From NCBI GenBank assembly GCA_037893245.1, contig JBAIAA010000028.1, positions 1,116,001-1,180,000 of the forward strand: a stretch of DNA of 64,000 nucleotides. Direction: 5' to 3'. The notes under the pieces are model-generated. The model had not been told where the DNA came from. It saw nothing but the letters and a program-made list of their open reading frames with translations, and did no database searches. Numbering within the stretch: the first letter of the stretch is position 1; the number at the start of each line of letters is the position of its first letter. The stretch comes from Crossaster papposus (taxonomy: Eukaryota; Echinodermata; Asteroidea; Velatida; Solasteridae). This document shows, in pieces, positions 62 to 63,990 of the stretch. The position numbers were made by a program, and so were the translations under genes.

Positions 62-3000
62 TCCCCAGTAGCACAATCGGTTAGCGCGTTGTACTTATAG
101 ACAGTGACCACACGCGTTACTGTAGAGAGATGGAAAGGTTGTGAGTTCGAGACTTACCTGGGGAATTGTCTGATATTTTGTAACACTTTTCTCTTCGATT
201 ATTCATTAATTAATGTTATTATTAATGGACTAAATGATCGCCTAATATACGGGACATCCCCAGTAGCACAATCGGTTAGCGCGTTGTACTTATAGACAGT
301 GACCACACGCGTTACTGTAGAGAGATGCAACGGTTGTTACTTCGAGCCTCACCTGGGGAATTGTCTTATAATTTTTAACACTTTTCTCTTCGATTATTCA
401 TTAATTTATTTTCTTATTTGCACTAAATGATCGCCTCATACACGGGACATCTCCAGTAGCACAATCGGTTAGCGCGTTGTACTTATAGACAGTGACCACA
501 CGCGTTGCTGCAGAGAGATACAAAGGTTGTGAGTTCGAGCCTCACCTGGGGAATTGTCTGATTTTTTTAAACACTTTTCTCTTCGATTATTCATTAATTA
601 ATGTTATTATTAATGGACTAAATGATCGCCTAATATACGGGACATCCCCAGTAGCACAATCGGTTAGCGCGTTGTACTTATAGACAGTGACCACACGCGT
701 TGCTGCAGAGAGATACAAAGGTTGTGAGTTCGAGCCTCACCTGGGAAATTGTCTGATTTTTTTAAACACTTTTCTCTTCGATTATTCATTAATTAATGTT
801 TTTATTAATGGACTAAATGATCGCCTCATACACGGGACATCCCCAGTAGCACAATCGGTTAGCGCGTTGTACTTATAGACAGTGACCACATGCGTTGCTG
901 TAGAGAGATGCAAAGGTTGTGAGTTCGAGCCTCACCTGGGGAATTGTCTGATATTTTTTAACACTTTTCTCTTCGATTATTCATTAATTAATGTTTTTAT
1001 AAATGGACTAAATGATCGCCTCATACACGGGACATCCCCAGTAGCACAATCGGTTAGCGCGTTGTACTTATAGACAGTGACCACACGCGTTGCTGCAGAG
1101 AGATGCAAAGGTTGTGAGTTCGAGCCTCACCTGGGGAATTGTCTGATATTTTTAAAAACTTTTCTCTTCGATTATTTATTAATTAATTTTCTTATTTGCA
1201 CTAAATGATCGCCTCATATATGGGACATCCCCAGTAGCACAATCGGTTAGCGCGTTGTATTTATAGACAGTGACCACACGCGTTACTGTAGAGAGATGCA
1301 AAGGTTGTGAGTTCGAGCCTCACCTGGGGAATTGTCTGATATATTTTAACACTTTTCTCTTGGATTATTCATTAATTAATGTTATTATTAATGGACTAAA
1401 TGATCGCCTCATATACGGGACATCCCCAGTAGCACAATCAGTTAGCGCGTTGTACTTATAGACAGTGACCACACGCGTTGCTGCAGAGAGATGCAAAGGT
1501 TGTGAGTTCGAGCCTCACCTGGGGAATTGTCTGATTTTTTTAAACACTTTTCTCTTCGATTATTTATTAATTAATGTTTTTATTAATGGACTAAATGATC
1601 GCCTCATACACGGGACATCCCCAGTAGCACAATCGGTTAGCGCGTTGTACTTATAGACAGTGACCACATGCGTTGCTGTAGAGAGATGCAAAGGTTGTGA
1701 GTTCGAGCCTCACCTGGGGAATTGTCTGATATATTTTAACACTTTTCTCTTGGATTATTCATTAATTAATGTTATTATTAATGGACTAAATGATCGCCTC
1801 ATATACGGGACATCCCCAGTAGCACAACCGGTTAGCGCGTTGTACTTATAGACAGTGACCACACGCGTTACTGTAGAGAGATGCAACGGTTGTGAGTTCG
1901 AGCCTCACCTGGGGAATTGTCTAATAATTTTTAACTTTTTTCTCTTCGATTATTCATTAATTAATTTTCTTATTTGCACTAAATGATCGCCTCATATACG
2001 GGACATCCCCAGTAGCACAATCGGTTAGCGCGTTGTACTTATAGACAGTGACCACACGCGTTACTGTAGAGAGATGCAAAGGTTGTGAGTTCGAGACTTA
2101 CCTGGGGAATTGTCTGATATTTTGTAACACTTTTCTCTTCGATTATTCATTAATTAATGTTATTATTAATGGACTAAATGATCGCCTAATATACGGGACA
2201 TCCCCAGTAGCACAATCGGTTAGCGCGTTGTACTTATAGACAGTGACCACACGCGTTACTGTAGAGAGATGCAACGGTTGTGAGTTCGAGCCTCACCTGG
2301 GGAATTGTCTAATAATTTTTAACTTTTTTCTCTTCGATTATTCATTAATTAATTTTCTTATTTGCACTAAATGATCGCCTCATATACGGGACATCCCCAG
2401 TAGCACAATCGGTTAGCGCGTTGTACTTATAGACAGTGACCACACGCGTTACTGTAGAGAGATGCAAAGGTTGTGAGTTCGAGACTTACCTGGGGAATTG
2501 TCTGATATTTTGTAACACTTTTCTCTTCGATTATTCATTAATTAATGTTATTATTAATGGACTAAATGATCGCCTAATATACGGGACATCCCCAGTAGCA
2601 CAATCGGTTAGCGCGTTGTACTTATAGACAGTGACCACACGCGTTACTGTAGAGAGATGCAACGGTTGTTACTTCGAGCCTCACCTGGGGAATTGTCTTA
2701 TAATTTTTAACACTTTTCTCTTCGATTATTCATTAATTTATTTTCTTATTTGCACTAAATGATCGCCTCATACACGGGACATCTCCAGTAGCACAATCGG
2801 TTAGCGCGTTGTACTTATAGACAGTGACCACACGCGTTGCTGCAGAGAGATACAAAGGTTGTGAGTTCGAGCCTCACCTGGGGAATTGTCTGATTTTTTT
2901 AAACACTTTTCTCTTCGATTATTCATTAATTAATGTTATTATTAATGGACTAAATGATCGCCTAATATACGGGACATCCCCAGTAGCACAATCGGTTAGC

Positions 3001-4664
3001 GCGTTGTACTTATAGACAGTGACCACACGCGTTGCTGCAGAGAGATACAAAGGTTGTGAGTTCGAGCCTCACCTGGGAAATTGTCTGATTTTTTTAAACA
3101 CTTTTCTCTTCGATTATTCATTAATTAATGTTTTTATTAATGGACTAAATGATCGCCTCATACACGGGACATCCCCAGTAGCACAATCGGTTAGCGCGTT
3201 GTACTTATAGACAGTGACCACATGCGTTGCTGTAGAGAGATGCAAAGGTTGTGAGTTCGAGCCTCACCTGGGGAATTGTCTGATATTTTTTAACACTTTT
3301 CTCTTCGATTATTCATTAATTAATGTTTTTATAAATGGACTAAATGATCGCCTCATACACGGGACATCCCCAGTAGCACAATCGGTTAGCGCGTTGTACT
3401 TATAGACAGTGACCACACGCGTTGCTGCAGAGAGATGCAAAGGTTGTGAGTTCGAGCCTCACCTGGGGAATTGTCTGATATTTTTAAAAACTTTTCTCTT
3501 CGATTATTTATTAATTAATTTTCTTATTTGCACTAAATGATCGCCTCATATATGGGACATCCCCAGTAGCACAATCGGTTAGCGCGTTGTATTTATAGAC
3601 AGTGACCACACGCGTTACTGTAGAGAGATGCAAAGGTTGTGAGTTCGAGCCTCACCTGGGGAATTGTCTGATATATTTTAACACTTTTCTCTTGGATTAT
3701 TCATTAATTAATGTTATTATTAATGGACTAAATGATCGCCTCATATACGGGACATCCCCAGTAGCACAATCAGTTAGCGCGTTGTACTTATAGACAGTGA
3801 CCACACGCGTTGCTGCAGAGAGATGCAAAGGTTGTGAGTTCGAGCCTCACCTGGGGAATTGTCTGATTTTTTTAAACACTTTTCTCTTCGATTATTTATT
3901 AATTAATGTTTTTATTAATGGACTAAATGATCGCCTCATACACGGGACATCCCCAGTAGCACAATCGGTTAGCGCGTTGTACTTATAGACAGTGACCACA
4001 TGCGTTGCTGTAGAGAGATGCAAAGGTTGTGAGTTCGAGCCTCACCTGGGGAATTGTCTGATATATTTTAACACTTTTCTCTTGGATTATTCATTAATTA
4101 ATGTTATTATTAATGGACTAAATGATCGCCTCATATACGGGACATCCCCAGTAGCACAACCGGTTAGCGCGTTGTACTTATAGACAGTGACCACACGCGT
4201 TACTGTAGAGAGATGCAACGGTTGTGAGTTCGAGCCTCACCTGGGGAATTGTCTAATAATTTTTAACTTTTTTCTCTTCGATTATTCATTAATTAATTTT
4301 CTTATTTGCACTAAATGATCGCCTCATATACGGGACATCCCCAGTAGCACAATCGGTTAGCGCGTTGTACTTATAGACAGTGACCACACGCGTTACTGTA
4401 GAGAGATGCAAAGGTTGTGAGTTCGAGACTTACCTGGGGAATTGTCTGATATTTTGTAACACTTTTCTCTTCGATTATTCATTAATTAATGTTATTATTA
4501 ATGGACTAAATGATCGCCTAATATACGGGACATCCCCAGTAGCACAATCGGTTAGCGCGTTGTACTTATAGACAGTGACCACACGCGTTACTGTAGAGAG
4601 ATGCAACGGTTGTTACTTCGAGCCTCACCTGTGGAATTGTCTTATAATTTTTAACACTTTTCTC
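1..4664 (+). repeat. 12-unit higher-order repeat, period 2332 bp, two copies
   Basis: The order of unit variants in 1-2332 recurs in 2333-4664: variant units whose introns begin at 104, 492, 687, 882, 1270, 1465, 1660 and 2048 reappear exactly 2332 bp later. Differences are few, such as the TGG at 131 that is TGC in the second copy. A third, shortened copy follows: units at 3019-4183 recur 1751 bp downstream at 4770-5934. The unit at 4533 is a hybrid. Its gene matches the variant at about 2590-2700, but its downstream spacer matches the next unit, as expected from unequal exchange. Confidence 0.85.
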
Positions 4665-7600
4665 TTCGATTATTCATTAATTAATGTTATTATTAATGGA
4701 CTAAATGATCGCCTAATATACGGGACATCCCCAGTAGCACAATCGGTTAGCGCGTTGTACTTATAGACAGTGACCACACGCGTTGCTGCAGAGAGATACA
4801 AAGGTTGTGAGTTCGAGCCTCACCTGGGGAATTGTCTGATTTTTTTAAACACTTTTCTCTTCGATTATTCATTAATTAATGTTTTTATTAATGGACTAAA
4901 TGATCGCCTCATACACGGGACATCCCCAGTAGCACAATCGGTTAGCGCGTTGTACTTATAGACAGTGACCACATGCGTTGCTGTAGAGAGATGCAAAGGT
5001 TGTGAGTTCGAGCCTCACCTGGGGAATTGTCTGATATTTTTTAACACTTTTCTCTTCGATTATTCATTAATTAATGTTTTTATAAATGGACTAAATGATC
5101 GCCTCATACACGGGACATCCCCAGTAGCACAATCGGTTAGCGCGTTGTACTTATAGACAGTGACCACACGCGTTGCTGCAGAGAGATGCAAAGGTTGTGA
5201 GTTCGAGCCTCACCTGGGGAATTGTCTGATATTTTTAAAAACTTTTCTCTTCGATTATTTATTAATTAATTTTCTTATTTGCACTAAATGATCGCCTCAT
5301 ATATGGGACATCCCCAGTAGCACAATCGGTTAGCGCGTTGTATTTATAGACAGTGACCACACGCGTTACTGTAGAGAGATGCAAAGGTTGTGAGTTCGAG
5401 CCTCACCTGGGGAATTGTCTGATATATTTTAACACTTTTCTCTTGGATTATTCATTAATTAATGTTATTATTAATGGACTAAATGATCGCCTCATATACG
5501 GGACATCCCCAGTAGCACAATCGGTTAGCGCGTTGTACTTATAGACAGTGACCACACGCGTTGCTGCAGAGAGATGCAAAGGTTGTGAGTTCGAGCCTCA
5601 CCTGGGGAATTGTCTGATTTTTTTAAACACTTTTCTCTTCGATTATTTATTAATTAATGTTTTTATTAATGGACTAAATGATCGCCTCATACACGGGACA
5701 TCCCCAGTAGCACAATCGGTTAGCGCGTTGTACTTATAGACAGTGACCACATGCGTTGCTGTAGAGAGATGCAAAGGTTGTGAGTTCGAGCCTCACCTGG
5801 GGAATTGTCTGATATATTTTAACACTTTTCTCTTGGATTATTCATTAATTAATGTTATTATTAATGGACTAAATGATCGCCTCATATACGGGACATCCCC
5901 AGTAGCACAACCGGTTAGCGCGTTGTACTTATAGACAGTGACCACACTCGTTGCTGTAGAGAGATGCAAAGGTTGTGAGTTCGAGCCTCACCTGGGGAAT
6001 TGTCAGATATTTTTAAACACTTTTCTCTTCGATTATTCATTAATTAATGTTCATATTTGCACTAAATGATCGCCTCGTATACGGGACATCCCCAGTAGCA
6101 CAATCGGTTAGCGCGTTGTACTTATAGACAGTGACCACATACGTTGCTGTAGAGAGATGCAAAGGTTGTGAGTTCGAGCCTCACCTGGGGAATTGTCTGA
6201 TATTTTGTAACACTTTTCTCTTCGATTATTCATTAATTAATGTCATTATTAATGGACTAAATGATCGCCTAATAAACGGGACATCCCCAGTAGCACAATC
6301 GGTTAGCGCGTTGTACTTATAGACAGTGACCACACGCGTTACTGTAGAGAGATGCAACGGTTGTGAGTTCGAGCCTCACCTGGGGAATTGTCTAATAATT
6401 TTTAACTTTTTTCTCTTCGATTATTCATTAATTAATTTTCGTATTTGCACTAAATGATCGCCTCATATACGGGACATCCCCAGTAGCACAATCGGTTAGC
6501 GCGTTGTACTTATAGACAGTGACCACACGCGTTACTGTAGAGAGATGCAAAGGTTGTGAGTTCGAGACTTACCTGGGGAATTGTCTGATATTTTGTAACA
6601 CTTTTCTCTTCGATTATTCATTAATTAATGTTATTATTAATGGACTAAATGATCGCCTAATATACGGGACATCCCCAGTAGCACAATCGGTTAGCGCGTT
6701 GTACTTATAGACAGTGACCACACGCGTTACTGTAGAGAGATGCAACGGTTGTGACTTCGAGCCTCACCTGGGGAATTGTCTTATAATTTTTAACACTTTT
6801 CTCTTCGATTATTCATTAATTTATTTTCTTATTTGCACTAAATGATCGCCTCATACACGGGACATCTCCAGTAGCACAATCGGTTAGCGCGTTGTACTTA
6901 TAGACAGTGACCACACGCATTACTGTAGAGAGATGCAAAGGTTGTGAGTTCGACCCTCACCTGGGGAATTGTCTGATATTTTGTAACACTTTTCTCTTCG
7001 ATTATTCATTAATAAATTTTATTATTAATGGACTAAATGATCGCCTCATACACGGGACATCCCCAGTAGCACAATCGGTTAGCGCGTTGTACTTATAGAC
7101 AGTGACCACACGCGTTGCTGTAGAGAGATGCAAAGGTTGTGAGTTCGAGCCTCACCTGGGGAATTGTCTGATATTTTGTAACACTTTTCTCTTCGATTAT
7201 TAATTAATTAATGTTCATATTTGCACTAAATGATCGTCTCATATACGGGACATCCCCAGTAGCACAATCGGTTAGCGCGTTGTACTTATAGACAGTGACC
7301 ACACGCGTTGCTGTAGAGAGATGCAAAGGTTGTGAGTTCGAGCCTCACCTGGGGAATTGTCTGTTATTTTTAAACACTTTTCTCTTCGATTATTCATTAA
7401 TTAATCTCCTTATTTGCACTAAATGATCGCCTCATATACGGGACATCCCCAGTAGCACAATCGGTTAGCCCGTTGTACTTATAGACAGTGACCACACGCG
7501 TTGCTGCAGAGAGATACAAAGGTTGTGAGTTCGAGCCTCACCTGGGGAATTGTCAGATTTTTTTAAACACTTTTCTCTTCGATTATTCATTAATTAATGT

Positions 7601-8715
7601 TTTTATTAATGGACTAAATGATCGCCTCATACACGGGTCATCCCCAGTAGCACAATCGGTTAGCGCGTTGTACTTATAGACAGTGACCACATGCGTTGCT
7701 GTAGAGAGATGCAAAGGTTGTGAGTTCGAGCCTCACCTGGGGAATTGTCTGATATTTTTTAACACTTTTCTCTTCGATTATTCATTAATTAATGTTTTTA
7801 TAAATGGACTAAATGATCGCCTCATACACGGGACATCCCCAGCAGCACAATCGGTTAGCGCGTTGTACTTATAGACAGTGACCACACGCGTTGCTGTAGA
7901 GAGATGCAAAGGTTGTGAGTTCGAGCCTCACCTGGGGAATTGTCTGATATTTTGTAACACTTTTCTCTTCGATTATTAATTAATTAATGTTCATATTTGC
8001 ACTAAATGATCGTCTCATATACGGGACATCCCCAGTAGCACAATCGGTTAGCGCGTTGTACTTATAGACAGTGACCACACGCGTTGCTGTAGAGAGATGC
8101 AAAGGTTGTGAGTTCGAGCCTCACCTGGGGAATTGTCTGTTATTTTTAAACACTTTTCTCTTCGATTATTCATTAATTAATCTCCTTATTTGCACTAAAT
8201 GATCGCCTCATATACGGGACATCCCCAGTAGCACAATCGGTTAGCCCGTTGTACTTATAGACAGTGACCACACGCGTTGCTGCAGAGAGATACAAAGGTT
8301 GTGAGTTCGAGCCTCACCTGGGGAATTGTCAGATTTTTTTAAACACTTTTCTCTTCGATTATTCATTAATTAATGTTTTTATTAATGGACTAAATGATCG
8401 CCTCATACACGGGTCATCCCCAGTAGCACAATCGGTTAGCGCGTTGTACTTATAGACAGTGACCACATGCGTTGCTGTAGAGAGATGCAAAGGTTGTGAG
8501 TTCGAGCCTCACCTGGGGAATTGTCTGATATTTTTTAACACTTTTCTCTTCGATTATTCATTAATTAATGTTTTTATAAATGGACTAAATGATCGCCTCA
8601 TACACGGGACATCCCCAGCAGCACAATCGGTTAGCGCGTTGTACTTATAGACAGTGACCACACGCGTTGCTGCAGAGAGATGCAAAGGTTGTGAGTTCGA
8701 GCCTCACCTGGGGAA
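62..8715 (+). tRNA. Tandem block 1: about 45 intron-containing tRNA-Ile(UAU) genes
   Basis: Head-to-tail copies of a 104-nt tRNA gene recur every 194-195 bp, all on the plus strand, the first at 62-165 and the last at 8612-8715. Each has the TCCCCAG/CTGGGGA acceptor stem, an A-box-like TAGCACAATCGG, anticodon TAT, a 30-nt intron after position 37, the T-stem pair GTGAG/CTCAC around TTCGAGC (B box) and discriminator A. Spacers come in two kinds, one ending TTATTAATGGAC or TTATAAATGGAC and one ending CTTATTTGCAC. Some copies are damaged: those near 301 and 2634, and the one at 4533, have GTTAC in the T-stem with two mismatches, and the copy at 62 has a G29-G41 clash. The count comes from dividing block length by period, not from scoring every copy. 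Many copies may be pseudogenes. Confidence 0.9.
7099..8650 (+). repeat. 4-unit higher-order repeat, period 776 bp, two copies
   Basis: Units in 7099-7874 recur in 7875-8650 with a 776-bp offset. They share rare variants: GTTAGCCCG in the D-arm (tRNA genes at 7446 and 8222), CACGGGTCATCC in the flank, and CCCCAGCAGC at the start of the following gene. The last unit of the second copy (intron CTGCAGAG) runs directly into the insertion at 8752. Confidence 0.85.
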
Positions 8716-8753
8716 TTGTCTGATATTTTTAAAAACTTTTCTCTTCGATTATT

Positions 8754-8783
8754 AGCTGTTTCGGCATTTCAGCCGAAACAGCT
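8754..8783. repeat. 5'-terminal hairpin 1 of the HINE-like element
   Basis: Perfect 12-bp arms AGCTGTTTCGGC / GCCGAAACAGCT around a 6-base loop. The left arm is the extreme 5' end of the element and matches, inverted, the CGAAACAGCT just inside its 3' end. Confidence 0.85.
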
Positions 8784-8804
8784 TTTGTTTTCGTTAAAGT
8801 TTTT

Positions 8805-8833
8805 AGCTGTTTCGGTTTTTCACCGAAACAGCT
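8805..8833. repeat. Hairpin 2 (AGCTGTTTCGGT)
   Basis: Perfect 12-bp arms AGCTGTTTCGGT / ACCGAAACAGCT with a 5-base loop. It is a near-copy of hairpin 1 with one compensated base pair (C-G replaced by T-A), so pairing is kept. Confidence 0.85.
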
Positions 8834-8847
8834 ATTGTTTTCGTTCT

Positions 8848-8849
<2 letters not shown>

Positions 8850-8895
<46 letters not shown>
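8850..8895. repeat. 46-base poly(T) tract
   Basis: An uninterrupted T homopolymer between hairpins 2 and 3. Tracts like this slip in replication and sequencing, so its exact length is unreliable. Confidence 0.95.
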
Positions 8896-8897
<2 letters not shown>

Positions 8898-8924
8898 CTG
8901 TTTCGGTTTTTCACCGAAACAGCT
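8896..8924. repeat. Hairpin 3 (AGCTGTTTCGGT)
   Basis: Same 12-bp arms and 5-base loop as hairpin 2, directly after the T46 tract. It is followed by ATCGTTAAAG and further T-rich sequence to about 8971. Confidence 0.85.
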
Positions 8925-9607
8925 TTTGTAATCGTTAAAGTTTTTTTTTTTCTTTTTTTTTTTTTTCTTTTTCAGATTTTTCTCCATAGGATTTGTACAC
9001 GTTTGTTCAGACAGGTCACTTAGGTACTTTGGTCAATCCGATCGACTTGAAACTTGGCATACATTTAGACAACCACACAAGGACGGTCCTAGAAGAAATT
9101 CGTCGCGATTACGTCACTCAAGGTCACGTGACTTTGCGTTAAAGGTTAAATTTTCCCCATAGGTTTTGTACACGTTTTTCTTCACACTATTGACTTTGAC
9201 ACTTTGGTACATCCGACCGACTTGAAACTTGGCATACACTTAGAACATCACCCACAGATGGTCCTGGAAGAAATTCGGCACGATTGCGTCATTCAAGGTC
9301 ACGTAATGTCACGTTAAAGTTTCAATTGTTTCCCCCATAGGTTTTGTACACGTTTTTCTTTAGTCTATGACTTAGACACTTTCGTAAATTTGATGGACTT
9401 GAGACTTGGCACACACTTAGACCACCATCCACAGACGGTCCTAGAAGACATTCGGCACGATTACGTCATTCAAGGTCACGGGGCGTCACGTTAAAGCCTC
9501 AATTTCCCCCATAGGTTTTGTACATGTTTTTCTTTAGGCTATTGACTTTGACACTTTAGTAAATCCGATCGGCTTGAGACTTGCCACACACAGAAGACCA
9601 CAGCACA

Positions 9608-9672
9608 CATATTGAAAGTAATTTTAGACACTCGAAACAGCTCTGTGTTTGTCCACAAACGCATGTCTAGTT
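9608..9672 (+). repeat. Internal copy 1 of the element's 3' end
   Basis: From ATATTGAAAGTAATTTTAG through CGAAACAGCT, TGTGTTTGT-CC-ACAAACGCA and CATGTCTAG, followed by a T-rich tract. It matches the true 3' terminus at 11350-11414, but the hairpin has one substituted base (G for A). Confidence 0.8.
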
Positions 9673-10328
9673 TTTTTTTTTGTTTTTTTTTTTGCCTTTT
9701 GTTCTCCATAGGATTTGTACACGTTTGTTCAGACAATACACTTTGACACTTTGGTAAATCCGATGGACTTGAGACTTGGCATACACTTAGACAACCACCC
9801 AAGGACGGTCCTAGAAGAAATTCGTCGCGATTACGTCATTCAAGGTCACGTGACTTAGCGTTAAAGGTGAAATTTTCCCCATAGGTTTTGTACACGTTTT
9901 TCTTCAGACTATTGAATTTGACACTTTGGTCAATCCGACCGACTTGAAACTTGCCATACACTCAGAACACCACCACCAGATGTTTCTGAAAAAAATTCAG
10001 CACGATTGCGTCATTCAAGGTCACGTGACGTCAAGTTAAAGGTTTAATTTGTCCCCCATAGGTTTTGTACACGTTTTTCTTTAGACTCTTGACTTTGACA
10101 CTTAGTTAATCCGATCGACTTGAGACTTGGCACACACATAGACCACCATCCACAGACGGTCGTAGGAGAAATTTGGCACGATTACGTCATTCAAGGTTAC
10201 GGGGTGTCACGTTAAAGGTTCAATTTTCCCCCATAGGTTTTGTACACGTTTTTCTTTAGACTATTGACTTTGACACTTTAGTAAATCTGATCGACTTGAG
10301 ACTTGGCACACACAAAAGATTACCACAT

Positions 10329-10394
10329 ACATATTGAAAGTAATTTTAGACACTCGAAACAGCTCTGTGTTTGTCCACAAACACATGTCTAGTT
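10329..10394 (+). repeat. Internal copy 2 of the element's 3' end
   Basis: A second internal copy of the terminal module, with the perfect TGTGTTTGT / ACAAACACA hairpin and CATGTCTAG, followed by a T-tract (about 10393-10407). With the terminal copy, the element has three tandem 3' ends. Confidence 0.8.
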
Positions 10395-11387
10395 TTTTTT
10401 TTTTTTTCTTCCTCTGTTTCAGACTCTTCTCTATACGATTTGTACACGTTTTTCTTCAGCCAATACACTTTGACACTTTGATAAATCCGATCGACTTGAT
10501 ACTTAGCATACACTTAGACCACCATCCACAGATGGTCCTAGAAGAAATTCGTAACGATTACGTCATTCATGGTCACGTGACGTCACGTTAAAGGTTCAAT
10601 TTTTTCCCATAGGTTTTGTACACGTTTTTCTTCAGACTATTGACTTTGACACTTTGGTAAATCCGATTGACTTTAGACTTAATATAAACCTCAACCACCA
10701 TCCTCAGGAGGGCCAAGAGGAAAATCGTCATGATTACGTCATCGGGGGTCATGTGACGTCACGTTAAAGGTGCAGTTTTTAGGACCCTCTATCTCTGGAA
10801 GTACAAGTCCGGTTGGGGTCAAACTTGGTTTGCAAGTATTCTAGGGTGTGTTATAGACGAAAATTAAGATGACGTAATTATGACATCATCGGGTGTCATG
10901 TGACGTCACATTAAATGTTCAATTTTCTCAATAGGTTTTGTACACGTTTTTCTTCAAAATATTGAATTTGACAGTTCTGTAAATTCGATCGACTTGAGAC
11001 TTAGCACAGACCTCGACCACCATCCTTAGGAGGGCCAAGAAAACAATAATCAAGATGACGTCATCGCGGGTCATGTGACGTCACATTAAAGGTGTAGTTT
11101 TTAAGACCCTCTAACTCTGAAAGTACAAGTCCGGTTGGGGTCAAACTTGGTATGCAAGTATTCCAGGATGTGTTACAGACGAAAATTAAGATGACATCAT
11201 GATGACATCATCGGGTATCATGTGACGTCACATTAAAGGTTCAAATTTCCCCATAGGATTTGTACACGTTTTTTCAACTAATATATATTTGGCACTTGTG
11301 TAAATCCAATCGACTTCAGACTTGGCACACACATAGACCACCACACACACATATATTGAAAGTAACGTTAGACAATCGAAACAGCTC

Positions 11388-11414
11388 TGTGTTTGTCCAC
11401 AAACACATGTCTAG
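11388..11414 (+). repeat. 3'-terminal hairpin and CTAG end
   Basis: Perfect 9-bp stem TGTGTTTGT / ACAAACACA with loop CC, then TGT and CTAG at 11411-11414, followed by array sequence TTTATTAATT. A short hairpin a few bases before CTAG is the diagnostic 3' structure of Helitron-class rolling-circle transposons. Confidence 0.7.
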
Positions 11415-52290: not shown

Positions 52291-53733
52291 TTGTCTGATA
52301 TTTTTAAACACTATTCTCTTCGATTATTCATTAATTAATTTTCTTATTTGCACTAAATGATCGCCTCATATACTGCACATCCCCAGTAGCACAATCGGTT
52401 AGCGCGTTGTACTTATAGACAGTGACAACACGCGTTGCTGTAGAGAGATCCAAATGTTGTGAGTTCGAGCCTCACCTGGGGAATTGTCTAATATTTTTAA
52501 ACACTTTTCTCTTCGATTATTCATTAATTAATGTTATTATTAATGGACTAAATGATCGCCTCATATACGGGACATCCCCAGTAGCACAATCGGTTAGCGC
52601 GTTGTACTTATAGACAGTGACCACACGCGTTGCTGTAGAGAGATCTAAAGGTTGTGAGTTCGAGCCTCACCTGGGGAATTGTCTGATATGTCTAAACACT
52701 TTTCTCTTCGATTATTCATTAATTAATTTTATTATTTGCACTAAATGATCGCCTCATATACTGCACATCCCCAGTAGCACAATCGGTTAGCGCGTTGTAC
52801 TTATAGACAGTGACAACACGCGTTGCTGTAGAGAGATCCAAATGTTGTGAGTTCGAGCCTCACCTGGGGAATTGTCTAATATTTTGTAAAACTTTTCTAT
52901 TCGATTATTCATTAATTAATGTTCTTATTTGCACTAAATGATCGCCTCATATACTGCACATCCCCAGTAGCACAATTGGTTAGCGCGTTGTACTTATAGA
53001 CAGTGACCACACGCGTTGCTGTAGAGAGATCTAAAGGTTGTGAGTTCGAGCCTCACCTGGGGAATTGTCTGATATGTCTAAACACTTTTCTCTTCGATTA
53101 TTCATTAATTAATTTTATTATTTGCACTAAATGATCGCCTCATATACTGCACATCCCCAGTAGCACAATCGGTTAGCGCGTTGTACTTATAGACAGTGAC
53201 AACACGCGTTGCTGAAGAGAGATCCAAATGTTGTGAGTTCGAGCCTCACCTGGGGAATTGTCTGATATTTTTATACACTTTTTCTTCGATTATCTATTAA
53301 TTAATTTTCTTATTTGCACTAAATGATCGCCTCATATACGGGACATCCCCAGTAGCACAATCGGTTAGCGCGTTGTACTTATAGACAGTGACCACACGCG
53401 TTACTGTAGAGAGATGCAAAGGTTGTGAGTTCGAGCCTCACCTGGGGAATTGTCTGATATTTTTTAACACTTTTCTCTTCGATTATTCATTAATTAATGT
53501 TTTTATAAATGGACTAAATGATCGCCTCATACACGGGACATCCCCAGTAGCACAATCGGTTAGCGCGTTGTACTTATAGACAGTGACCACACGCGTTGCT
53601 GTAGAGAGATGCAAAGGTTGTGAGTTCGAGCCTCACCTGGGGAATTGTCTGTTATTTTTAAACACTTTTCTCTTCGAATATTCATTAATTAATGTTCTTA
53701 TTTGCACTAAATGATCGCCTCATACACGGGACA

Positions 53734-53837
53734 TCCCCAGTAGCACAATCGGTTAGCGCGTTGTACTTAAAGGCAGTGACCACACACGTTGCTGCAGAGA
53801 GATGCAAAGGTTGTAAGTTCGAGCCTCACCTGGGGAA
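53734..53837 (+). tRNA. tRNA-Ile body with anticodon UAA (3 of 5)
   Basis: Exact 1547-bp-offset copy of the previous one, anticodon at 53768-53770, with the same T-stem change. Confidence 0.85.
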
Positions 53838-54895
53838 TTGTCTGATATTTTTAAACACTATTCTCTTCGATTATTCATTAATTAATTTTCTTATTTGCAC
53901 TAAATGATCGCCTCATATACTGCACATCCCCAGTAGCACAATCGGTTAGCGCGTTGTACTTATAGACAGTGACAACACGCGTTGCTGTAGAGAGATCCAA
54001 ATGTTGTGAGTTCGAGCCTCACCTGGGGAATTGTCTAATATTTTTAAACACTTTTCTCTTCGATTATTCATTAATTAATGTTATTATTAATGGACTAAAT
54101 GATCGCCTCATATACGGGACATCCCCAGTAGCACAATCGGTTAGCGCGTTGTACTTATAGACAGTGACCACACGCGTTGCTGTAGAGAGATCTAAAGGTT
54201 GTGAGTTCGAGCCTCACCTGGGGAATTGTCTGATATGTCTAAACACTTTTCTCTTCGATTATTCATTAATTAATTTTATTATTTGCACTAAATGATCGCC
54301 TCATATACTGCACATCCCCAGTAGCACAATCGGTTAGCGCGTTGTACTTATAGACAGTGACAACACGCGTTGCTGTAGAGAGATCCAAATGTTGTGAGTT
54401 CGAGCCTCACCTGGGGAATTGTCTAATATTTTGTAAAACTTTTCTATTCGATTATTCATTAATTAATGTTCTTATTTGCACTAAATGATCGCCTCATATA
54501 CTGCACATCCCCAGTAGCACAATTGGTTAGCGCGTTGTACTTATAGACAGTGACCACACGCGTTGCTGTAGAGAGATCTAAAGGTTGTGAGTTCGAGCCT
54601 CACCTGGGGAATTGTCTGATATGTCTAAACACTTTTCTCTTCGATTATTCATTAATTAATTTTATTATTTGCACTAAATGATCGCCTCATATACTGCACA
54701 TCCCCAGTAGCACAATCGGTTAGCGCGTTGTACTTATAGACAGTGACAACACGCGTTGCTGAAGAGAGATCCAAATGTTGTGAGTTCGAGCCTCACCTGG
54801 GGAATTGTCTAATATTTTGTAAAACTTTTCTATTCGATTATTCATTAATTAATGTTCTTATTAATGGACTAAATGATCGCCTCATAAACGGGGCA

Positions 54896-54999
54896 TCACC
54901 ATTAGCACAATCGGTTAGCGCGTTGTACTTATAGACAGTGACCACACGCGTTGCTGTAGAGAGATGCAAAGGTTGTGAGTTCGAGGCTCACGTGGGGAA
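54896..54999 (+). tRNA. tRNA-Ile copy with altered acceptor stem (1 of 2)
   Basis: 5' strand TCACCAT and 3' strand GTGGGGA. Changes on both strands turn G7-C66 into a T7-G66 wobble, while C3 to A gives an A-G clash with base 70. The T-loop is TTCGAGG. The copy is probably decayed, although the two-sided change at 7/66 is notable. Confidence 0.75.
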
Positions 55000-55219
55000 T
55001 TGTCTGATATTTTTTAACACTTTTCTCTTCGATTATTCATTAATTAATTTTCTTATTTGCACTAAATGATCGCCTCATATACTGCACATCCCCAGTAGCA
55101 CAATTGGTTAGCGCGTTGTATTTATAGACAGTGACCACACGCGTTGCTGTAGAGAGATCTAAAGGTTGTGAGTTCGAGCCTCACCTGGGGAATTGTCTGA
55201 TATGTCTAAACACTTTTCT

Positions 55220-58200
55220 CTTCGATTATTCATTAATTAATGTTCATATTTGCACTAAATGATTGCCTCATATACGGGACATCCCCAGTAGCACAATCGG
55301 TTAGCGCGTTGTACTTATAGACAGTGACCACACGCGTTACTGTAGAGAGATGCAAAGGTTGTGAGTTCGAGCCTCACCTGGGGAATTGTCTGATATTTTT
55401 AAACACTTTTCTCTTCGATTATTCATTAATTAATTTTCTTATTTGCCCTAAATGATCGCCTCATATACGGGACATCCCCAGTAGCACAATCGGTTAGCGC
55501 GTTGTACTTATAGACAGTGACCACACGCGTTGCTGCAGAGAGATGCAAAGGTTGTGAGTTCGAACCTCACCTGTGGAATTGTCTGATATTTTTAAAAACT
55601 TTTCTCTTCGATTATTCATTAATTAATTTTCTTATTTGCACTAAATGATCGCCTCATATACGGGACATCCCCAGTAGCACAATCGGTTAGCGCGTTGTAT
55701 TTATAGACAGTGACCACACGCGTTACTGTAGAGAGATGCAAAGGTTGTGAGTTCGAGCCTCACCTGGGGAATTGTCTGATATTTTTAAACACTTTTCTCT
55801 TCGATTATTCATTAATTAATGTTTTTATAAATGTACTAAATGATCGCCTCATACACGGGACATCCCCAGTAGCACAATCGGTTAGCGTGTTGTACTTATA
55901 GACAGTGACCACACGCGTTGCTGCAGAGAGATGCAAAGGTTGTGAGTTCGAGCCTCACCTGGGGAATTGTCTGATATTTTTTAACACATTTCTCTTCGAT
56001 TATTCATTAATTAATTTTCTTATTTGCACTAAATGATCGCCTCACACACGGGACATCCCCAGTAGCACAATCGGTTAGCGCGTTGTACTTATAGACAGTG
56101 ACCACACGCGTTACTGTAGAGAGATGCAAAGGTTTTGAGTTCGAGCCTCACCTGGGGAATTGTCTGATATTTTTAAACACTTTTCTCTTCGATTATTCAT
56201 TAATGAATTTTCTTATTTGCCCTAAATGATCGCCTCATACACGGGACATCCCCAGTAGCACAATCGGTTAGCGCGTTGTATTTATAGACAGTGACCACAC
56301 GCGTTACTGTAGAGAGATGCAAAGGTTGTGAGTTCGAGCCTCACCTGGGGAATTGTCTGATATTTTTAAACACTTTTCTCTTCGATTATTCATTAATTAA
56401 TGTTTTTATAAATGTACTAAATGATCGCCTCATACACGGGACATCCCCAGTAGCACAATCGGTTAGCGTGTTGTACTTATAGACAGTGACCACACGCGTT
56501 GCTGCAGAGAGATGCAAAGGTTGTGAGTTCGAGCCTCACCTGGGGAATTGTCTGATATTTTTTAACACATTTCTCTTCGATTATTCATTAATTAATTTTC
56601 TTATTTGCACTAAATGATCGCCTCACACACGGGACATCCCCAGTAGCACAATCGGTTAGCGCGTTGTACTTATAGACAGTGACCACACGCGTTACTGTAG
56701 AGAGATGCAAAGGTTTTGAGTTCGAGCCTCACCTGGGGAATTGTCTGATATTTTTAAACACTTTTCTCTTCGATTATTCATTAATGAATTTTCTTATTTG
56801 CCCTAAATGATCGCCTCATACACGGGACATCCCCAGTAGCACAATCGGTTAGCGCGTTGTGCTTATAGACAGTGACTACACGCGTTGCTGCAGAGAGATG
56901 CAAAGGTTGTGAGTTCGAACCTCACCTGGGGAATTGTCTGATATTTTTAAAAACTTTTCTCTTCGATTATTCATTAATTAATTTTCTTATTTGCACTAAA
57001 TGATCGCCTCATATACGGGACGTCCCCAGTAGCACAATCGGTTAGCGCGTTGTATTTATAGACAGTGACCACACGCGTTACTGTAGAGAGATGCAAAGGT
57101 TGTGAGTTCGAGCCTCACCTGGGGAATTGTCTGATATTTTTAAACACTTTTCTCTTCGATTATTCATTAATTAATGTTTTTATAAATGGACTAAATGATC
57201 GCCTCATACACGGGACATCCCCAGTAGCACAATCGGTTAGCGCGTTGTACTTATAGACAGTGACCACACGCGTTGCTGCAGAGAGATGCAAAGGTTGTGA
57301 GTTCGAGCCTCACCTGGGGAATTGTCTGATATTTTTAAACACTTTTCTCTTCGATTATTCATTAATTAATGTTCATATTTGCACTAAATGATTGCCTCAT
57401 ATACGGGACATCCCCAGTAGCACAATCGGTTAGCGCGTTGTACTTATAGACAGTGACCACACGCGTTACTGTAGAGAGATGCAAAGGTTGTGAGTTCGAG
57501 CCTCACCTGGGGAATTGTCTGATATTTTTAAACACTTTTCTCTTCGATTATTCATTAATTAATTTTCTTATTTGCCCTAAATGATCGCCTCATATACGGG
57601 ACATCCCCAGTAGCACAATCGGTTAGCGCGTTGTACTTATAGACAGTGACCACACGCGTTGCTGCAGAGAGATGCAAAGGTTGTGAGTTCGAACCTCACC
57701 TGTGGAATTGTCTGATATTTTTAAAAACTTTTCTCTTCGATTATTCATTAATTAATTTTCTTATTTGCACTAAATGATCGCCTCATATACGGGACATCCC
57801 CAGTAGCACAATCGGTTAGCGCGTTGTATTTATAGACAGTGACCACACGCGTTACTGTAGAGAGATGCAAAGGTTGTGAGTTCGAGCCTCACCTGGGGAA
57901 TTGTCTGATATTTTTAAACACTTTTCTCTTCGATTATTCATTAATTAATGTTTTTATAAATGTACTAAATGATCGCCTCATACACGGGACATCCCCAGTA
58001 GCACAATCGGTTAGCGTGTTGTACTTATAGACAGTGACCACACGCGTTGCTGCAGAGAGATGCAAAGGTTGTGAGTTCGAGCCTCACCTGGGGAATTGTC
58101 TGATATTTTTTAACACATTTCTCTTCGATTATTCATTAATTAATTTTCTTATTTGCACTAAATGATCGCCTCACACACGGGACATCCCCAGTAGCACAAT

Positions 58201-59480
58201 CGGTTAGCGCGTTGTACTTATAGACAGTGACCACACGCGTTACTGTAGAGAGATGCAAAGGTTTTGAGTTCGAGCCTCACCTGGGGAATTGTCTGATATT
58301 TTTAAACACTTTTCTCTTCGATTATTCATTAATGAATTTTCTTATTTGCCCTAAATGATCGCCTCATACACGGGACATCCCCAGTAGCACAATCGGTTAG
58401 CGCGTTGTATTTATAGACAGTGACCACACGCGTTACTGTAGAGAGATGCAAAGGTTGTGAGTTCGAGCCTCACCTGGGGAATTGTCTGATATTTTTAAAC
58501 ACTTTTCTCTTCGATTATTCATTAATTAATGTTTTTATAAATGTACTAAATGATCGCCTCATACACGGGACATCCCCAGTAGCACAATCGGTTAGCGTGT
58601 TGTACTTATAGACAGTGACCACACGCGTTGCTGCAGAGAGATGCAAAGGTTGTGAGTTCGAGCCTCACCTGGGGAATTGTCTGATATTTTTTAACACATT
58701 TCTCTTCGATTATTCATTAATTAATTTTCTTATTTGCACTAAATGATCGCCTCACACACGGGACATCCCCAGTAGCACAATCGGTTAGCGCGTTGTACTT
58801 ATAGACAGTGACCACACGCGTTACTGTAGAGAGATGCAAAGGTTTTGAGTTCGAGCCTCACCTGGGGAATTGTCTGATATTTTTAAACACTTTTCTCTTC
58901 GATTATTCATTAATGAATTTTCTTATTTGCCCTAAATGATCGCCTCATACACGGGACATCCCCAGTAGCACAATCGGTTAGCGCGTTGTGCTTATAGACA
59001 GTGACTACACGCGTTGCTGCAGAGAGATGCAAAGGTTGTGAGTTCGAACCTCACCTGGGGAATTGTCTGATATTTTTAAAAACTTTTCTCTTCGATTATT
59101 CATTAATTAATTTTCTTATTTGCACTAAATGATCGCCTCATATACGGGACGTCCCCAGTAGCACAATCGGTTAGCGCGTTGTATTTATAGACAGTGACCA
59201 CACGCGTTACTGTAGAGAGATGCAAAGGTTGTGAGTTCGAGCCTCACCTGGGGAATTGTCTGATATTTTTAAACACTTTTCTCTTCGATTATTCATTAAT
59301 TAATGTTTTTATAAATGGACTAAATGATCGCCTCATACACGGGACATCCCCAGTAGCACAATCGGTTAGCGCGTTGTACTTATAGACAGTGACCACACGC
59401 GTTGCTGCAGAGAGATGCAAAGGTTGTGAGTTCGAGCCTCACCTGGGGAATTGTCTGATATTTTTAAACACTTTTCTCTT
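55220..59480 (+). repeat. 11-unit higher-order repeat, period 2129 bp, two copies, with inner 581-bp repeat
   Basis: Units at 55710, 56291 and 57065 recur at 57839, 58420 and 59194. Within each copy a 3-unit, 581-bp segment is itself doubled (55710 and 56291; 57839 and 58420), so the inner duplication came before the outer one. Confidence 0.8.
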
Positions 59481-60120
59481 CGATTATTCATTAATTAATT
59501 TTCTTATTTGCACTAAATGATCGCCTCATATACGGGACATCCCCAGTAGCACAATCGGTTAGCGCGTTGTACTTATAGACAGTGACCACACGCGTTGCTG
59601 TAGAGAGATGCAAAGGTTGTGAGTTCGAGCCTCACCTGGGGAATTGTCTGTTATTTTTAAACACTTTTCTCTTCGATTATTCATTAATTAATGTTCTTAT
59701 TTGCACTAAATGATCGCCTCATACACGGGACATCCCCAGTAGCACAATCGGTTAGCGCGTTGTACTTATAGACAGTGACCACACGCGTTACTGTAGAGAG
59801 ATGCAAAGGTTGTGAGTTCGAGCCTCACCTGGGGAATTGTCTGATATATTTTAACACTTTTCTCTTGGATTATTCATTAATTAATGTTATTATTAATGGA
59901 CTAAATGATCGCCTCATATACGGGACATCCCCAGTAGCACAACCGGTTAGCGCGTTGTACTTATAGACAGTGACAACACGCGTTGCTGCAGAGAGATGCA
60001 AAAGTTGTGAGTTCGAGCCTCACCTGGGGAATTGTCTGATATTTTTAAACACTTTTCTCTTCGATTATTCATTAATTAATTTTCTTATTTGCCCTAAATG
60101 ATCGCCTCATATACGGGACA

Positions 60121-60224
60121 TCCCCAGTAGCACAATCGGTTAGCGCGTTGTACTTAAAGGCAGTGACCACACACGTTGCTGCAGAGAGATGCAAAAGTTG
60201 TGAGTTCGAGCCTCACCTGGGGAA
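60121..60224 (+). tRNA. tRNA-Ile body with anticodon UAA (4 of 5)
   Basis: Anticodon TAA at 60155-60157. Has GCAAAAGTTG (variable-loop G45 changed to A) like copy 1 and an intact T-stem. Confidence 0.85.
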
Positions 60225-62249
60225 TTGTCTGATATTTTTAAACACTTTTCTCTTCGATTATTCATTAATTAATTTTCTTATTTGCACTAAATGATCGCCT
60301 CATATACTGCACATCCCCAGTAGCACAATCGGTTAGCGCGTTGTACTTATAGACAGTGACAACACGCGTTGCTGTAGAGAGATCCAAATGTTGTGAGTTC
60401 GAGCCTCACCTGGGGAATTGTCTAATATTTTTAAACACTTTTCTCTTCGATTATTCATTAATTAATGTTATTATTAATGGACTAAATGATCGCCTCATAT
60501 ACGGGACATCCCCAGTAGCACAATCGGTTAGCGCGTTGTACTTATAGACAGTGACCACACGCGTTGCTGCAGAGAGATGCAAAGGTTGTGAGTTCGAGCC
60601 TCACCTGGGAAATTGTCTGATATTTTTAAACACTTTTCTCTTCGATTATTCATTAATTAATTTTCTTATTTGCACTAAATGATCGCCTCATATACTGCAC
60701 ATCCCCAGTAGCACAATTGGTTAGCGCGTTGTACTTATAGACAGTGACCACACGCGTTGCTGTAGAGAGATCTAAAGGTTGTGAGTTCGAGCCTCACCTG
60801 GGGAATTGTCTGATATGTCTAAACACTTTTCTCTTCGATTATTCATTAATTAATTTTCTTATTTGCACTAAATGATCGCCTCATATACTGCACATCCCCA
60901 GTAGCACAATCGGTTAGCGCGTTGTACTTATAGACAGTGACCACATGCGTTGCTGTAGACAGATGCAAAGGTTGTGAGTTCGAGCCTCACCTGGGGAATT
61001 GTCTGTTATTTTTTAACACATTTCTCTTCGATTATTCATTAATTAATTTTCTTATTTGCACTAAATGATCGCCTCACACACGGGACATCCCCAGTAGCAC
61101 AATCGGTTAGCGCGTTGTACTTATAGACAGTGACCACACGCGTTACTGTAGAGAGATGCAAAGGTTGTGAGTTCGAGCCTCACCTGGGGAATTGTCTGAT
61201 ATTTTTAAACACTTTTCTCTTCGATTATTTATTAATTAATTTTCTTATTTGCCCTAAATGATCGCCTCATACACGGGACATCCCCAGTAGCACAATCGGT
61301 TAGCGCGTTGTACTTATAGACAGTGACTACACGCGTTGCTGCAGAGAGATGCAAAGGTTGTGAGTTCGAACCTCACCTGGGGAATTGTCTGATATTTTTA
61401 AAAACTTTTCTCTTCGATTATTCATTAATTAATTTTCTTATTTGCACTAAATGATCGCCTCATATACGGGACATCCCCAGTAGCACAATCGGTTAGCGCG
61501 TTGTATTTATAGACAGTGACCACACGCGTTACTGTAGAGAGATGCAAAGGTTGAGAGTTCGAGCCTCACCTGGGGAATTGTCTGATATTTTTAAACACTT
61601 TTCTCTTCGATTATTCATTAATTAATGTTTTTATAAATGGACTAAATGATCGCCTCATACACGGGACATCCCCAGTAGCACAATCGGTTAGCGCGTTGTA
61701 CTTATAGACAGTGACCACACGCGTTGCTGCAGAGAGATGCAAAGGTTGTGAGTTCGAGCCTCACCTGGGGAATTGTCTGATATTTTTATACACTTTTCTC
61801 TTCGATTATCTATTAATTAATTTTCTTATTTGCACTAAATGATCGCCTCATATACGGGACATCCCCAGTAGCACAATCGGTTAGCGCGTTGTACTTATAG
61901 ACAGTGACCACACGCGTTACTGTAGAGAGATGCAAAGGTTGTGAGTTCGAGCCTCACCTGGGGAATTGTCTGATATTTTTTAACACTTTTCTCTTCGATT
62001 ATTCATTAATTAATGTTTTTATAAATGGACTAAATGATCGCCTCATACACGGGACATCCCCAGTAGCACAATCGGTTAGCGCGTTGTACTTATAGACAGT
62101 GACCACACGCGTTGCTGTAGAGAGATGCAAAGGTTGTGAGTTCGAGCCTCACCTGGGGAATTGTCTGTTATTTTTAAACACTTTTCTCTTCGAATATTCA
62201 TTAATTAATGTTCTTATTTGCACTAAATGATCGCCTCATACACGGGACA

Positions 62250-62353
62250 TCCCCAGTAGCACAATCGGTTAGCGCGTTGTACTTAAAGGCAGTGACCACA
62301 CACGTTGCTGCAGAGAGATGCAAAGGTTGTAAGTTCGAGCCTCACCTGGGGAA
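62250..62353 (+). tRNA. tRNA-Ile body with anticodon UAA (5 of 5)
   Basis: Anticodon TAA at 62284-62286. It is the 8516-bp-offset copy of the one at 53734 and carries the same GTAAGTTCG T-stem change. Confidence 0.85.
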
Positions 62354-63411
62354 TTGTCTGATATTTTTAAACACTTTTCTCTTCGATTATTCATTAATTA
62401 ATTTTCTTATTTGCACTAAATGATCGCCTCATATACTGCACATCCCCAGTAGCACAATCGGTTAGCGCGTTGTACTTATAGACAGTGACAACACGCGTTG
62501 CTGTAGAGAGATCCAAATGTTGTGAGTTCGAGCCTCACCTGGGGAATTGTCTAATATTTTTAAACACTTTTCTCTTCGATTATTCATTAATTAATGTTAT
62601 TATTAATGGACTAAATGATCGCCTCATATACGGGACATCCCCAGTAGCACAATCGGTTAGCGCGTTGTACTTATAGACAGTGACCACACGCGTTGCTGTA
62701 GAGAGATCTAAAGGTTGTGAGTTCGAGCCTCACCCGGGGAATTGTCTGATATGTCTAAACACTTTTCTCTTCGATTATTCATTAATTAATTTTATTATTT
62801 GCACTAAATGATCGCCTCATATACTGCACATCCCCAGTAGCACAATCGGTTAGCGCGTTGTACTTATAGACAGTGACAACACGCGTTGCTGTAGAGAGAT
62901 CCAAATGTTGTGAGTTCGAGCCTCACCTGGGGAATTGTCTAATATTTTGTAAAACTTTTCTATTCGATTATTCATTAATTAATGTTCTTATTTGCACTAA
63001 ATGATCGCCTCATATACTGCACATCCCCAGTAGCACAATTGGTTAGCGCGTTGTACTTATAGACAGTGACCACACGCGTTGCTGTAGAGAGATCTAAAGG
63101 TTGTGAGTTCGAGCCTCACCTGGGGAATTGTCTGATATGTCTAAACACTTTTCTCTTCGATTATTCATTAATTAATTTTATTATTTGCACTAAATGATCG
63201 CCTCATATACTGCACATCCCCAGTAGCACAATCGTTTAGCGCGTTGTACTTATAGACAGTGACCACACGCGTTGCTGTAGAGAGATCCAAATGTTGTGAG
63301 TTCGAGCCTCACCTGGGGAATTGTCTAATATTTTGTAAAACTTTTCTATTCAATTATTCATTAATTAATGTTCTTATTAATGGACTAAATGATCGCCTCA
63401 TAAACGGGGCA

Positions 63412-63515
63412 TCACCATTAGCACAATCGGTTAGCGCGTTGTACTTATAGACAGTGACCACACGCGTTGCTGTAGAGAGATGCAAAGGTTGTGAGTTCGA
63501 GGCTCACGTGGGGAA
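63412..63515 (+). tRNA. tRNA-Ile copy with altered acceptor stem (2 of 2)
   Basis: The 8516-bp-offset copy of 54896-54999, with the same TCACCAT/GTGGGGA acceptor stem and TTCGAGG T-loop. Confidence 0.75.
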
Positions 63516-63990
63516 TTGTCTGATATTTTTTAACACTTTTCTCTTCGATTATTCATTAATTAATTTTCTTATTTGCACTAAATGATCGCCTCATATACTG
63601 CACATCCCCAGTAGCACAATTGGTTAGCGCGTTGTATTTATAGACAGTGACCACACGCGTTGCTGTAGAGAGATGCAAAGGTTGTGAGTTCGAGCCTCAC
63701 CTGGGGAATTGTCTGATATGTCTAAACACTTTTCTCTTCGATTATTCATTAATTAATGTTCATATTTGCACTAAATGATTGCCTCATATACGGGACATCC
63801 CCAGTAGCACAATCGGTTAGCGCGTTGTACTTATAGACAGTGACCACACGCGTTACTGTAGAGAGATGCAAAGGTTGTGAGTTCGAGCCTCACCTGGGGA
63901 ATTGTCTGATATTTTTAAACACTTTTCTCTTCGATTATTCATTAATTAATTTTCTTATTTGCCCTAAATGATCGCCTCATATACGGGACA

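What the first reader, a model, noticed from the sequence alone, without database searches (positions are those of the whole stretch)
62..63901. About 284 tandem intron-containing tRNA-Ile(UAU) genes behaving like a satellite
Nearly all the non-transposon DNA here is a 193-195 bp repeat whose core is a near-complete split tRNA-Ile(UAU) gene with A box, B box, intron and T-run. tRNA-Ile(UAU) is normally a low-copy gene in animals. Hundreds of head-to-tail copies could be a Pol III-transcribed satellite, an amplified supply of a rare decoder or of its fragments, or a dense TFIIIC-binding platform. The array runs past both window edges. That the units are tRNA genes is seen directly; their role is inference.
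Basis: partly seen in the sequence, partly recalled or inferred. Interest (0 to 1): 0.9.

Follow-up and report, generated by a model that had tools for sequence, protein, structure and literature searches.

The report
Thousand-copy tandem tRNA-Ile(UAU) gene array
An invertebrate genome carries a normally scarce transfer-RNA gene as more than a thousand head-to-tail copies, alongside a solitary copy with the identical mature sequence, so a real gene has been multiplied into something that evolves like satellite DNA; what the extra copies do is not yet known.

Summary
The window has 284 same-strand, mostly 193 or 195 bp units, each centred on a split tRNA-Ile(UAU) gene; 248 of 284 reach Rfam's tRNA cut-off. 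It is a slice of an array of about 228 kb on contig C28 (about 1,130 units, estimated). Contig C830 carries a second version between matching flanks (about 137 kb), probably the other allele. A solitary gene on C243 has exons identical to the array consensus (74 of 74), a diverged intron and no detectable 5' flank homology. So the units are amplified copies of the host's tRNA gene. Among 888 units exon diversity is about one third of spacer diversity, yet alleles below 10% are as dense in exons, and distinct damaging alleles as frequent, as chance predicts: constrained as a whole, nearly expendable singly. The same genome has tRNA-Lys(UUU) arrays too. Tandem tRNA arrays are known elsewhere; this one is extreme in unit size, copy number and being one intron-containing isoacceptor. 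Best reading: a concertedly evolving, probably stage-restricted tRNA-Ile(UAU) supply. Expression is untested.

The parts
1..8753 (+). Array segment 1: 45 tRNA cores in tandem 193-195 bp units
   Evidence: TRF period 195, 45.1 copies; cores by nhmmer
840..943 (+). A representative tRNA-Ile(UAU) gene: exon 1 840-877, intron 878-907, exon 2 908-943
   Evidence: 49.4 bits to RF00005; exon and intron limits by cloverleaf pairing and unit consensus
8754..11414 (.). Insertion 1: repeat-rich element with terminal hairpins, ends in CTAG; Helitron/Helentron-like by recall only
   Evidence: Gap between cores; sequence read
11415..12031 (+). Array segment 2: 3 tRNA cores
12032..17212 (+). Insertion 2: DNA transposon with 16 bp perfect terminal inverted repeats and AAAT target duplication (12028-12031 and 17213-17216)
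   Evidence: Sequence read
13182..15596 (+). 804-codon stop-to-stop frame of the transposon; Pfam DUF7869 (PF25273)
17213..27066 (+). Array segment 3: 51 tRNA cores
27067..28136 (.). Insertion 3: shorter copy of insertion 1 (99.8% identical over 1026 bp) in the same unit context
28137..64000 (+). Array segment 4: 185 tRNA cores, continuing past the window

Best explanation
A tRNA-Ile(UAU) gene of this host, with about 90 bp of flank, was amplified head to tail into a satellite-scale array and is kept alike by unequal exchange and gene conversion. Each unit carries its own internal promoter (A and B boxes), intron and a T-run, so each could in principle be transcribed by Pol III and spliced. 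The array as a whole is preserved as a source of the AUA-decoding tRNA, most plausibly switched on only at a stage of high demand (oocyte or early embryo, as for Xenopus tandem tRNA arrays) and otherwise silent; any one copy is nearly dispensable. Shown: units, extent, two versions, a solitary gene with identical exons, the constraint pattern, low linkage. Inferred: exchange and conversion as the cause, transcription, stage restriction, supply role.
For: A solitary gene at C243:199405-199510(-) has both exons identical to the array consensus (74 of 74); its intron has 5 mismatches and 2 one-base indels against the 30 nt array intron, and its 5' flank aligns no better than shuffles (43 of 200 reach the score). 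If exons had diverged like the intron, with sites independent, 0 of 74 would have probability about 1e-6. 340 of 888 units carry exactly those exons. Exon diversity 0.023 against 0.058 in the intron and 0.070 in the spacer; exon/spacer 0.24-0.48 in all 8 blocks of 111 units. Alleles at 10% or more: 0 in 74 exon sites, 10 (at 9 sites) in 119 intron and spacer sites (Fisher p 0.015); among these ten the highest r2 is 0.38. C830 (35 units) against 100 sampled C28 units: frequency differences above 0.3 at 0 of 74 exon, 1 of 30 intron and 4 of 89 spacer sites. Damaging exon alleles are carried by fewer units than expected (339 against 453, P 0.016). All 7 cells with both sides of a pair changed keep the pair, though all are at one pair and may be one inherited event.
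Against: Distinct damaging exon alleles are not depleted: 73 against 72.7 expected. Alleles below 10% per site are as common in exons (111 in 74) as in intron (42 in 30) and spacer (132 in 89). 298 of 888 units lack at least one consensus pair or invariant base. Single-change pair cells: 300 unpaired, 127 kept. The minimum-energy fold of the spliced consensus is not the cloverleaf (-24.6 against -20.4 kcal/mol). A T4 run within 44 nt downstream is present in 888 of 888, but the spacer consensus holds a second such run, so this says little. The lone decayed copy differs from the consensus at 8 of 74 exon, 3 of 30 intron and 12 of 76 spacer sites, so it shows no clear exon protection. A solitary gene exists, so the array is not strictly needed. 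No expression, ChIP or chromatin data were available. The tests treat related units as independent.
Confidence: 0.5

Rival explanations
1. Inert satellite. A functional tRNA gene was captured in a tandem duplication and spread by unequal exchange; the array is silent heterochromatin and the tRNA content is a passenger. Low exon diversity reflects descent from a functional founder and homogenisation.
For: Distinct damaging alleles at chance frequency and low-frequency alleles equally dense in exons and spacer; weak local higher-order periods (best lag per stretch 9 to 47 units); transposon insertions tolerated and one copied with the array; array length differs between C28 and C830; a solitary gene could suffice.
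Against: No exon allele has reached 10% while ten intron or spacer alleles have, at low mutual linkage; exon/spacer ratio below 0.5 in every block; damaging alleles under-represented by unit count.
Confidence: 0.33
2. TFIIIC/Pol III chromatin platform. The nucleosome-sized spacing of A and B boxes serves as insulator, replication barrier or nuclear-organisation site; the RNA product is secondary.
For: The A-box region is the least variable of seven exon parts scored (0.014 against 0.020-0.053); 193-195 bp period; a human tRNA tandem repeat is implicated as a boundary element (abstract, PMC4041453).
Against: The B box (0.024) is no more conserved than the acceptor stem (0.020); the TAT anticodon is kept in 869 of 888 units, which a binding platform does not need.
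Confidence: 0.1
3. Assembly artefact: a few copies inflated by the assembler.
For: Array length was not checked with reads; only one assembly could be seen.
Against: 483 of 888 units distinct; flanks on both sides; C830 carries another array between matching flanks, with 0 of 35 sampled units identical to any of 888 C28 units. The control is modest: of 24 units from the C28 left end, 3 are identical to another of the 888.
Confidence: 0.04

Closest known systems
Hydractinia tandem arrays of tRNA genes (PMC11067881; passages read)
   [quoted passage not shown] significance unclear
   [quoted passage not shown] here the spacer is 89 bp and one isoacceptor has about 1,130 copies (estimate)
Xenopus oocyte-specific tandem tRNA genes activated at zygotic genome activation (commentary PMC11500080, part 1 of 2 of the text read; the original paper was not seen)
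   Same: Tandemly arrayed Pol III tRNA genes in an animal
   Different: Multi-gene units of about 3 kb (recalled); activity shown there, untested here
Entamoeba tRNA gene arrays (PMC2652664; abstract and outline)
   Same: Tandem tRNA gene arrays, uniform within an isolate
   Different: Almost all tRNA genes are arrayed there, up to 5 genes per unit, in E. histolytica with short tandem repeats between genes
Arabidopsis Ser/Tyr (SYY) tRNA cluster (PMC12308677; passages read)
   Same: Tandem tDNAs with clustered and dispersed copies and minor variants, silent in most tissues
   Different: Tens of Tyr copies, multi-gene unit; expression in root tip cells shown
Human 1q23.3 tRNA VNTR (PMC4041453; abstract and outline)
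   Same: tRNA tandem repeat with large allele-length differences
   Different: 7.3 kb unit, 9-43 copies, CTCF-bound

Membership tests
Nuclear split tRNA-Ile(UAU) gene | Reaches the tRNA covariance model cut-off | tested here: met
   248 of 284 units; 36 not listed
Nuclear split tRNA-Ile(UAU) gene | UAU anticodon, cloverleaf pairs and invariant bases | tested here: met
   TAT in 869 of 888; 20 of 21 pairs in the consensus (A12 x C23 unpaired, also in the solitary gene); 590 of 888 units keep at least 20 pairs and all 15 invariants. Against: the minimum-energy fold is not the cloverleaf
Nuclear split tRNA-Ile(UAU) gene | Transcribed, spliced, charged with Ile | not testable with these tools
   No RNA data
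Tandem tRNA gene arrays | Head-to-tail, evenly spaced, near-identical units with spacer | tested here: met
   892 array cores in C28:1016001-1197526, all +, mostly 193 or 195 bp
Satellite DNA | Long homogenised array, length-variable, with local higher-order repeats | tested here: met
   About 228 kb on C28 against about 137 kb between the flanks on C830; weak local periods; low linkage between common alleles
Satellite DNA | Heterochromatic and mostly silent | not testable with these tools
   No chromatin data; CpG observed/expected 1.09 in the unit, 0.90 in 80 kb of flank
tRNA-derived SINE | Dispersed through the genome | tested here: not met
   C28 accounts for about 1113 of 1116 forward matches, 213 of these by extrapolation; the 36 reverse matches listed, of 579, are on C830
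Helenus-type LTR element with tRNA-like LTR | Paired LTRs, internal part, 5 bp target duplication | not tested
   No such structure was looked for

The most novel reading that the evidence does not exclude
A rare, AUA-decoding, intron-containing tRNA gene has been amplified about a thousandfold beside a solitary copy, as a stage-restricted bank that floods the oocyte or embryo with tRNA-Ile(UAU) or its fragments, and the genome does the same for tRNA-Lys(UUU): a codon-specific gene-amplification strategy carried by satellite-like DNA.
Probability: 0.25. Interest if true: 0.85.

Novelty: new variant of a known kind. Interest (0 to 1): 0.6.

Why it matters
It is a clean natural case where a gene and a satellite are the same DNA: 193 bp, one gene, about a thousand copies, two allele-like versions, and a solitary control gene with identical exons but a different intron. 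Because the introns differ, array and solitary precursor transcripts can be told apart by sequencing, so whether massive tRNA gene amplification changes the tRNA pool, and when, is directly testable. It also gives a quantitative example of concerted evolution in which the mature sequence is kept at array level while single copies decay.

Tried and rejected
Assembly inflation of a few copies: rejected on unit diversity and the C830 version. SINE or dispersed family: rejected, one locus plus C830 as far as the counts and listed places show. A tRNA-Ile(UAU) with the anticodon stem and D-arm that I recall from other animals: 0 matches to two patterns; a looser pattern then found the C243 gene. Its match on C288 was fetched and is no tRNA: no Rfam match up to E = 1 in 400 bp. 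Exact pieces of the unit in prokaryote genome contigs (35 bases) and viral contigs (24 bases): 0. Literature: 'tRNA genes' + 'tandem array' + 'tRNA-Ile' + 'satellite' gave 0 papers; 'tRNA genes' + 'tandem' + 'tRNA-Ile' + 'mollusc' + 'expansion' gave 5, four on mitochondrial genomes by title and one on LTR elements (PMC10886601, passages read), none of them on a nuclear tRNA-Ile array as far as seen. Host identity: transposase best named hit Patella caerulea at 40%, OAS-like exon in the flank best named hit Patiria miniata at 55%; phylum left open. CpG depletion as a sign of methylation: not seen. A first unit split by a fixed word gave 12 C830 and 695 C28 units and was replaced by the nhmmer split. 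Rows dropped: 4 of 284 and 4 of 892 units without a full spacer; one empty row among 36 C830 rows, still counted as a gap.
Full report
WHAT IS THERE. The window is G000:C28:1116001-1180000 of a 1.02 Gb, 1841-contig assembly. It holds 284 head-to-tail units, all on the + strand, mostly 193 or 195 bp. The consensus unit has a 38 nt exon 1, a 30 nt intron one base 3' of the anticodon, a 36 nt exon 2 including A73, and 89 bp of spacer. 248 of 284 reach the Rfam tRNA cut-off; the first unit at 62 is one of the 36 not listed.

EXTENT. In C28:1016001-1280000 there are 893 cores, all +. 892 form the array, whose last core ends at 1197526; one diverged lone core lies at 1249833 and has no match at the Rfam cut-off. 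The first core on the left lies at about 969.25 kb. A 27-base pattern with up to 2 mismatches occurs 1116 times forward and 579 times reverse in the whole genome, the reversed control 0 and 0. The pieces of C28 in hand hold 875 + 25 matches, and about 213 are expected in the 42 kb not fetched, together about 1113. So the forward matches are essentially this one array, about 1,130 units by estimate. Places are listed only in part: the 36 reverse ones listed are all on C830.

SECOND VERSION. The flank right of the C28 array is collinear with C830:208001-214600 in reverse: blocks of 747 and 1649 bp at 96% and 97%, and shorter or repetitive blocks of 80-91% between them, with gaps. The left flank matches C830:351454-353872 at 93-94%; among the 40 of 13,570 candidates that were scored, no other matches over that length, and a repeat in it of about 310 bp occurs widely. 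C830 therefore appears to hold the same locus with an array region of about 137 kb. Units were seen there at its low end, at 245-249 kb and up to 345.7 kb, while a sampled 10 kb (228-238 kb) has none. An allele is the simplest reading; a recent segmental duplication is not excluded. None of 35 sampled C830 units is identical to any of 888 C28 units (best identities 95.4-99.5%, median 97.4). As a control, 3 of 24 units from the C28 left end are identical to one of the 888 (median best identity 97.7), so the difference is small. The commonest exon pair is the same, in 17 of 35. Between C830 and 100 sampled C28 units, frequency differences above 0.3 occur at 0 exon, 1 intron and 4 spacer sites.

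THE SOLITARY GENE. A pattern for the D-arm, anticodon and a base other than G after it gave 21 matches: 5 array variants on C28 and 13 on C830, the lone decayed copy (a positive control), one place on C288 that is no tRNA, and one gene on C243. That gene (C243:199405-199510, minus strand, 49.3 bits) has both exons letter for letter as in the array consensus. Its intron is 32 nt with 5 mismatches and 2 one-base indels. The 5' flank is no more similar than shuffled sequence (43 of 200 reach the score). The 3' side is borderline (21 of 200), and the BLAST alignment runs about 17 nt into the trailer with 4 mismatches. This pattern would miss genes whose intron begins with G or whose fixed bases differ, so 'one' is a minimum. 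The A12 x C23 mismatch and T1-A72 pair are shared by the solitary gene, so they belong to this host's tRNA and are no sign of array decay.

CONSTRAINT. Of 892 units, 888 had a full spacer: 483 distinct units and 154 distinct exon pairs. Diversity is 0.023 in exons, 0.058 in the intron and 0.070 in the spacer, with exon/spacer 0.24-0.48 in each of 8 blocks. Alleles below 10% number 111 in 74 exon sites, 42 in 30 intron sites and 132 in 89 spacer sites; alleles at 10% or more number 0, 2 and 8. Among those ten alleles (nine sites) the highest r2 is 0.38, though the 2 bp insertion that makes the 195 bp form is linked to one of them at 0.91. This argues for conversion or exchange within units. Distinct damaging exon alleles number 73, against 72.7 expected under random placement; by unit count 339 against 453 (P 0.016). 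340 of 888 units have exons identical to the solitary gene. So the mature sequence is held at the level of the array, and selection on a single copy is weak or absent, as expected with such redundancy.

ARRAY DYNAMICS. There is no array-wide higher-order repeat, only weak local periods (best lag per stretch 9 to 47 units, 11 most often). Insertions 1 and 3 are copies of one element in the same unit context, 99.8% identical over 1026 bp, so the array has been copied in blocks after the insertion. Both C28 edges and the end of the lone copy lie at the motif AAATGATCGC, and the lone copy starts with an imperfect form of it. The C830 edge seen does not: it stops shortly after a degenerate last tRNA. 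The motif is unexplained.

THE GENOME AT LARGE. C479 carries tRNA-Lys(UUU) at mostly 572 or 576 bp spacing, and C424 carries tRNA-Lys(UUU)-type matches at about 770 bp spacing in both orientations. One 39-base pattern with up to 2 mismatches has 46 + 761 matches in the genome. C8 has a mixed Lys(UUU)/Asn(GUU) cluster. The Ile array is thus one case of a habit of this genome.

HOW IT MAY WORK. From general knowledge, A and B boxes inside the gene recruit TFIIIC, then TFIIIB and Pol III; a T-run ends transcription; the tRNA splicing endonuclease removes the intron. The unit has these parts in sequence. Whether the array is used is not shown. A survey reports that array-like tRNA gene clusters arose many times in eukaryotes (PMC2888827, passages read). 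The closest functional precedent is the Xenopus set of oocyte-specific tandem tRNA genes activated at zygotic genome activation (PMC11500080); the nearest structural precedent is Hydractinia (PMC11067881). I put supply at about one half and inert satellite at about one third.

LIMITS. One assembly, no reads, no RNA. Statistics treat related units as independent. Two whole-genome searches did not complete. The animal tRNA-Ile motif used, and the statement that this isoacceptor is rare in animals, are recalled.

Noticed in passing
L001, L004-L008 (G000:C479, places listed from 19 to 486 kb) and G000:C424:1269154-1376177: Further tandem tRNA arrays in the same genome: tRNA-Lys(UUU) at 572-576 bp and at about 770 bp spacing; 807 matches to one Lys pattern genome-wide.
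   Followed up: partly
L002, L003 (G000:C8:3521191-3524535): Mixed cluster of tRNA-Lys(UUU) and tRNA-Asn(GUU) genes.
   Followed up: no
window 8754-11414 and 27067-28136: Two copies of one insertion in the same unit context, 99.8% identical over 1026 bp, the second shorter by about 1.6 kb: a marker of block duplication in the array.
   Followed up: partly
window 12032-17212: DNA transposon with 16 bp terminal inverted repeats, AAAT target duplication and a DUF7869 protein; best named relative in Patella caerulea (40%).
   Followed up: partly
L025:9797-10000 (G000:C28:1249.8 kb) and L022:629-700 (C28:1210.6 kb): A lone decayed whole unit 52 kb beyond the array end, and a smaller fragment nearer; both C28 array edges and the lone copy's end lie at the motif AAATGATCGC, the C830 edge seen does not.
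   Followed up: partly
5 of 280 full window units; 11 of 888 in C28: Units whose anticodon reads TAA instead of TAT, which would change decoding if expressed.
   Followed up: no
L023:5459-5920 (G000:C28:1225459-1225920, minus): Exon of a 2'-5'-oligoadenylate synthase-like gene in the flank; its hits carry PF10421, best named hit Patiria miniata 55%.
   Followed up: no
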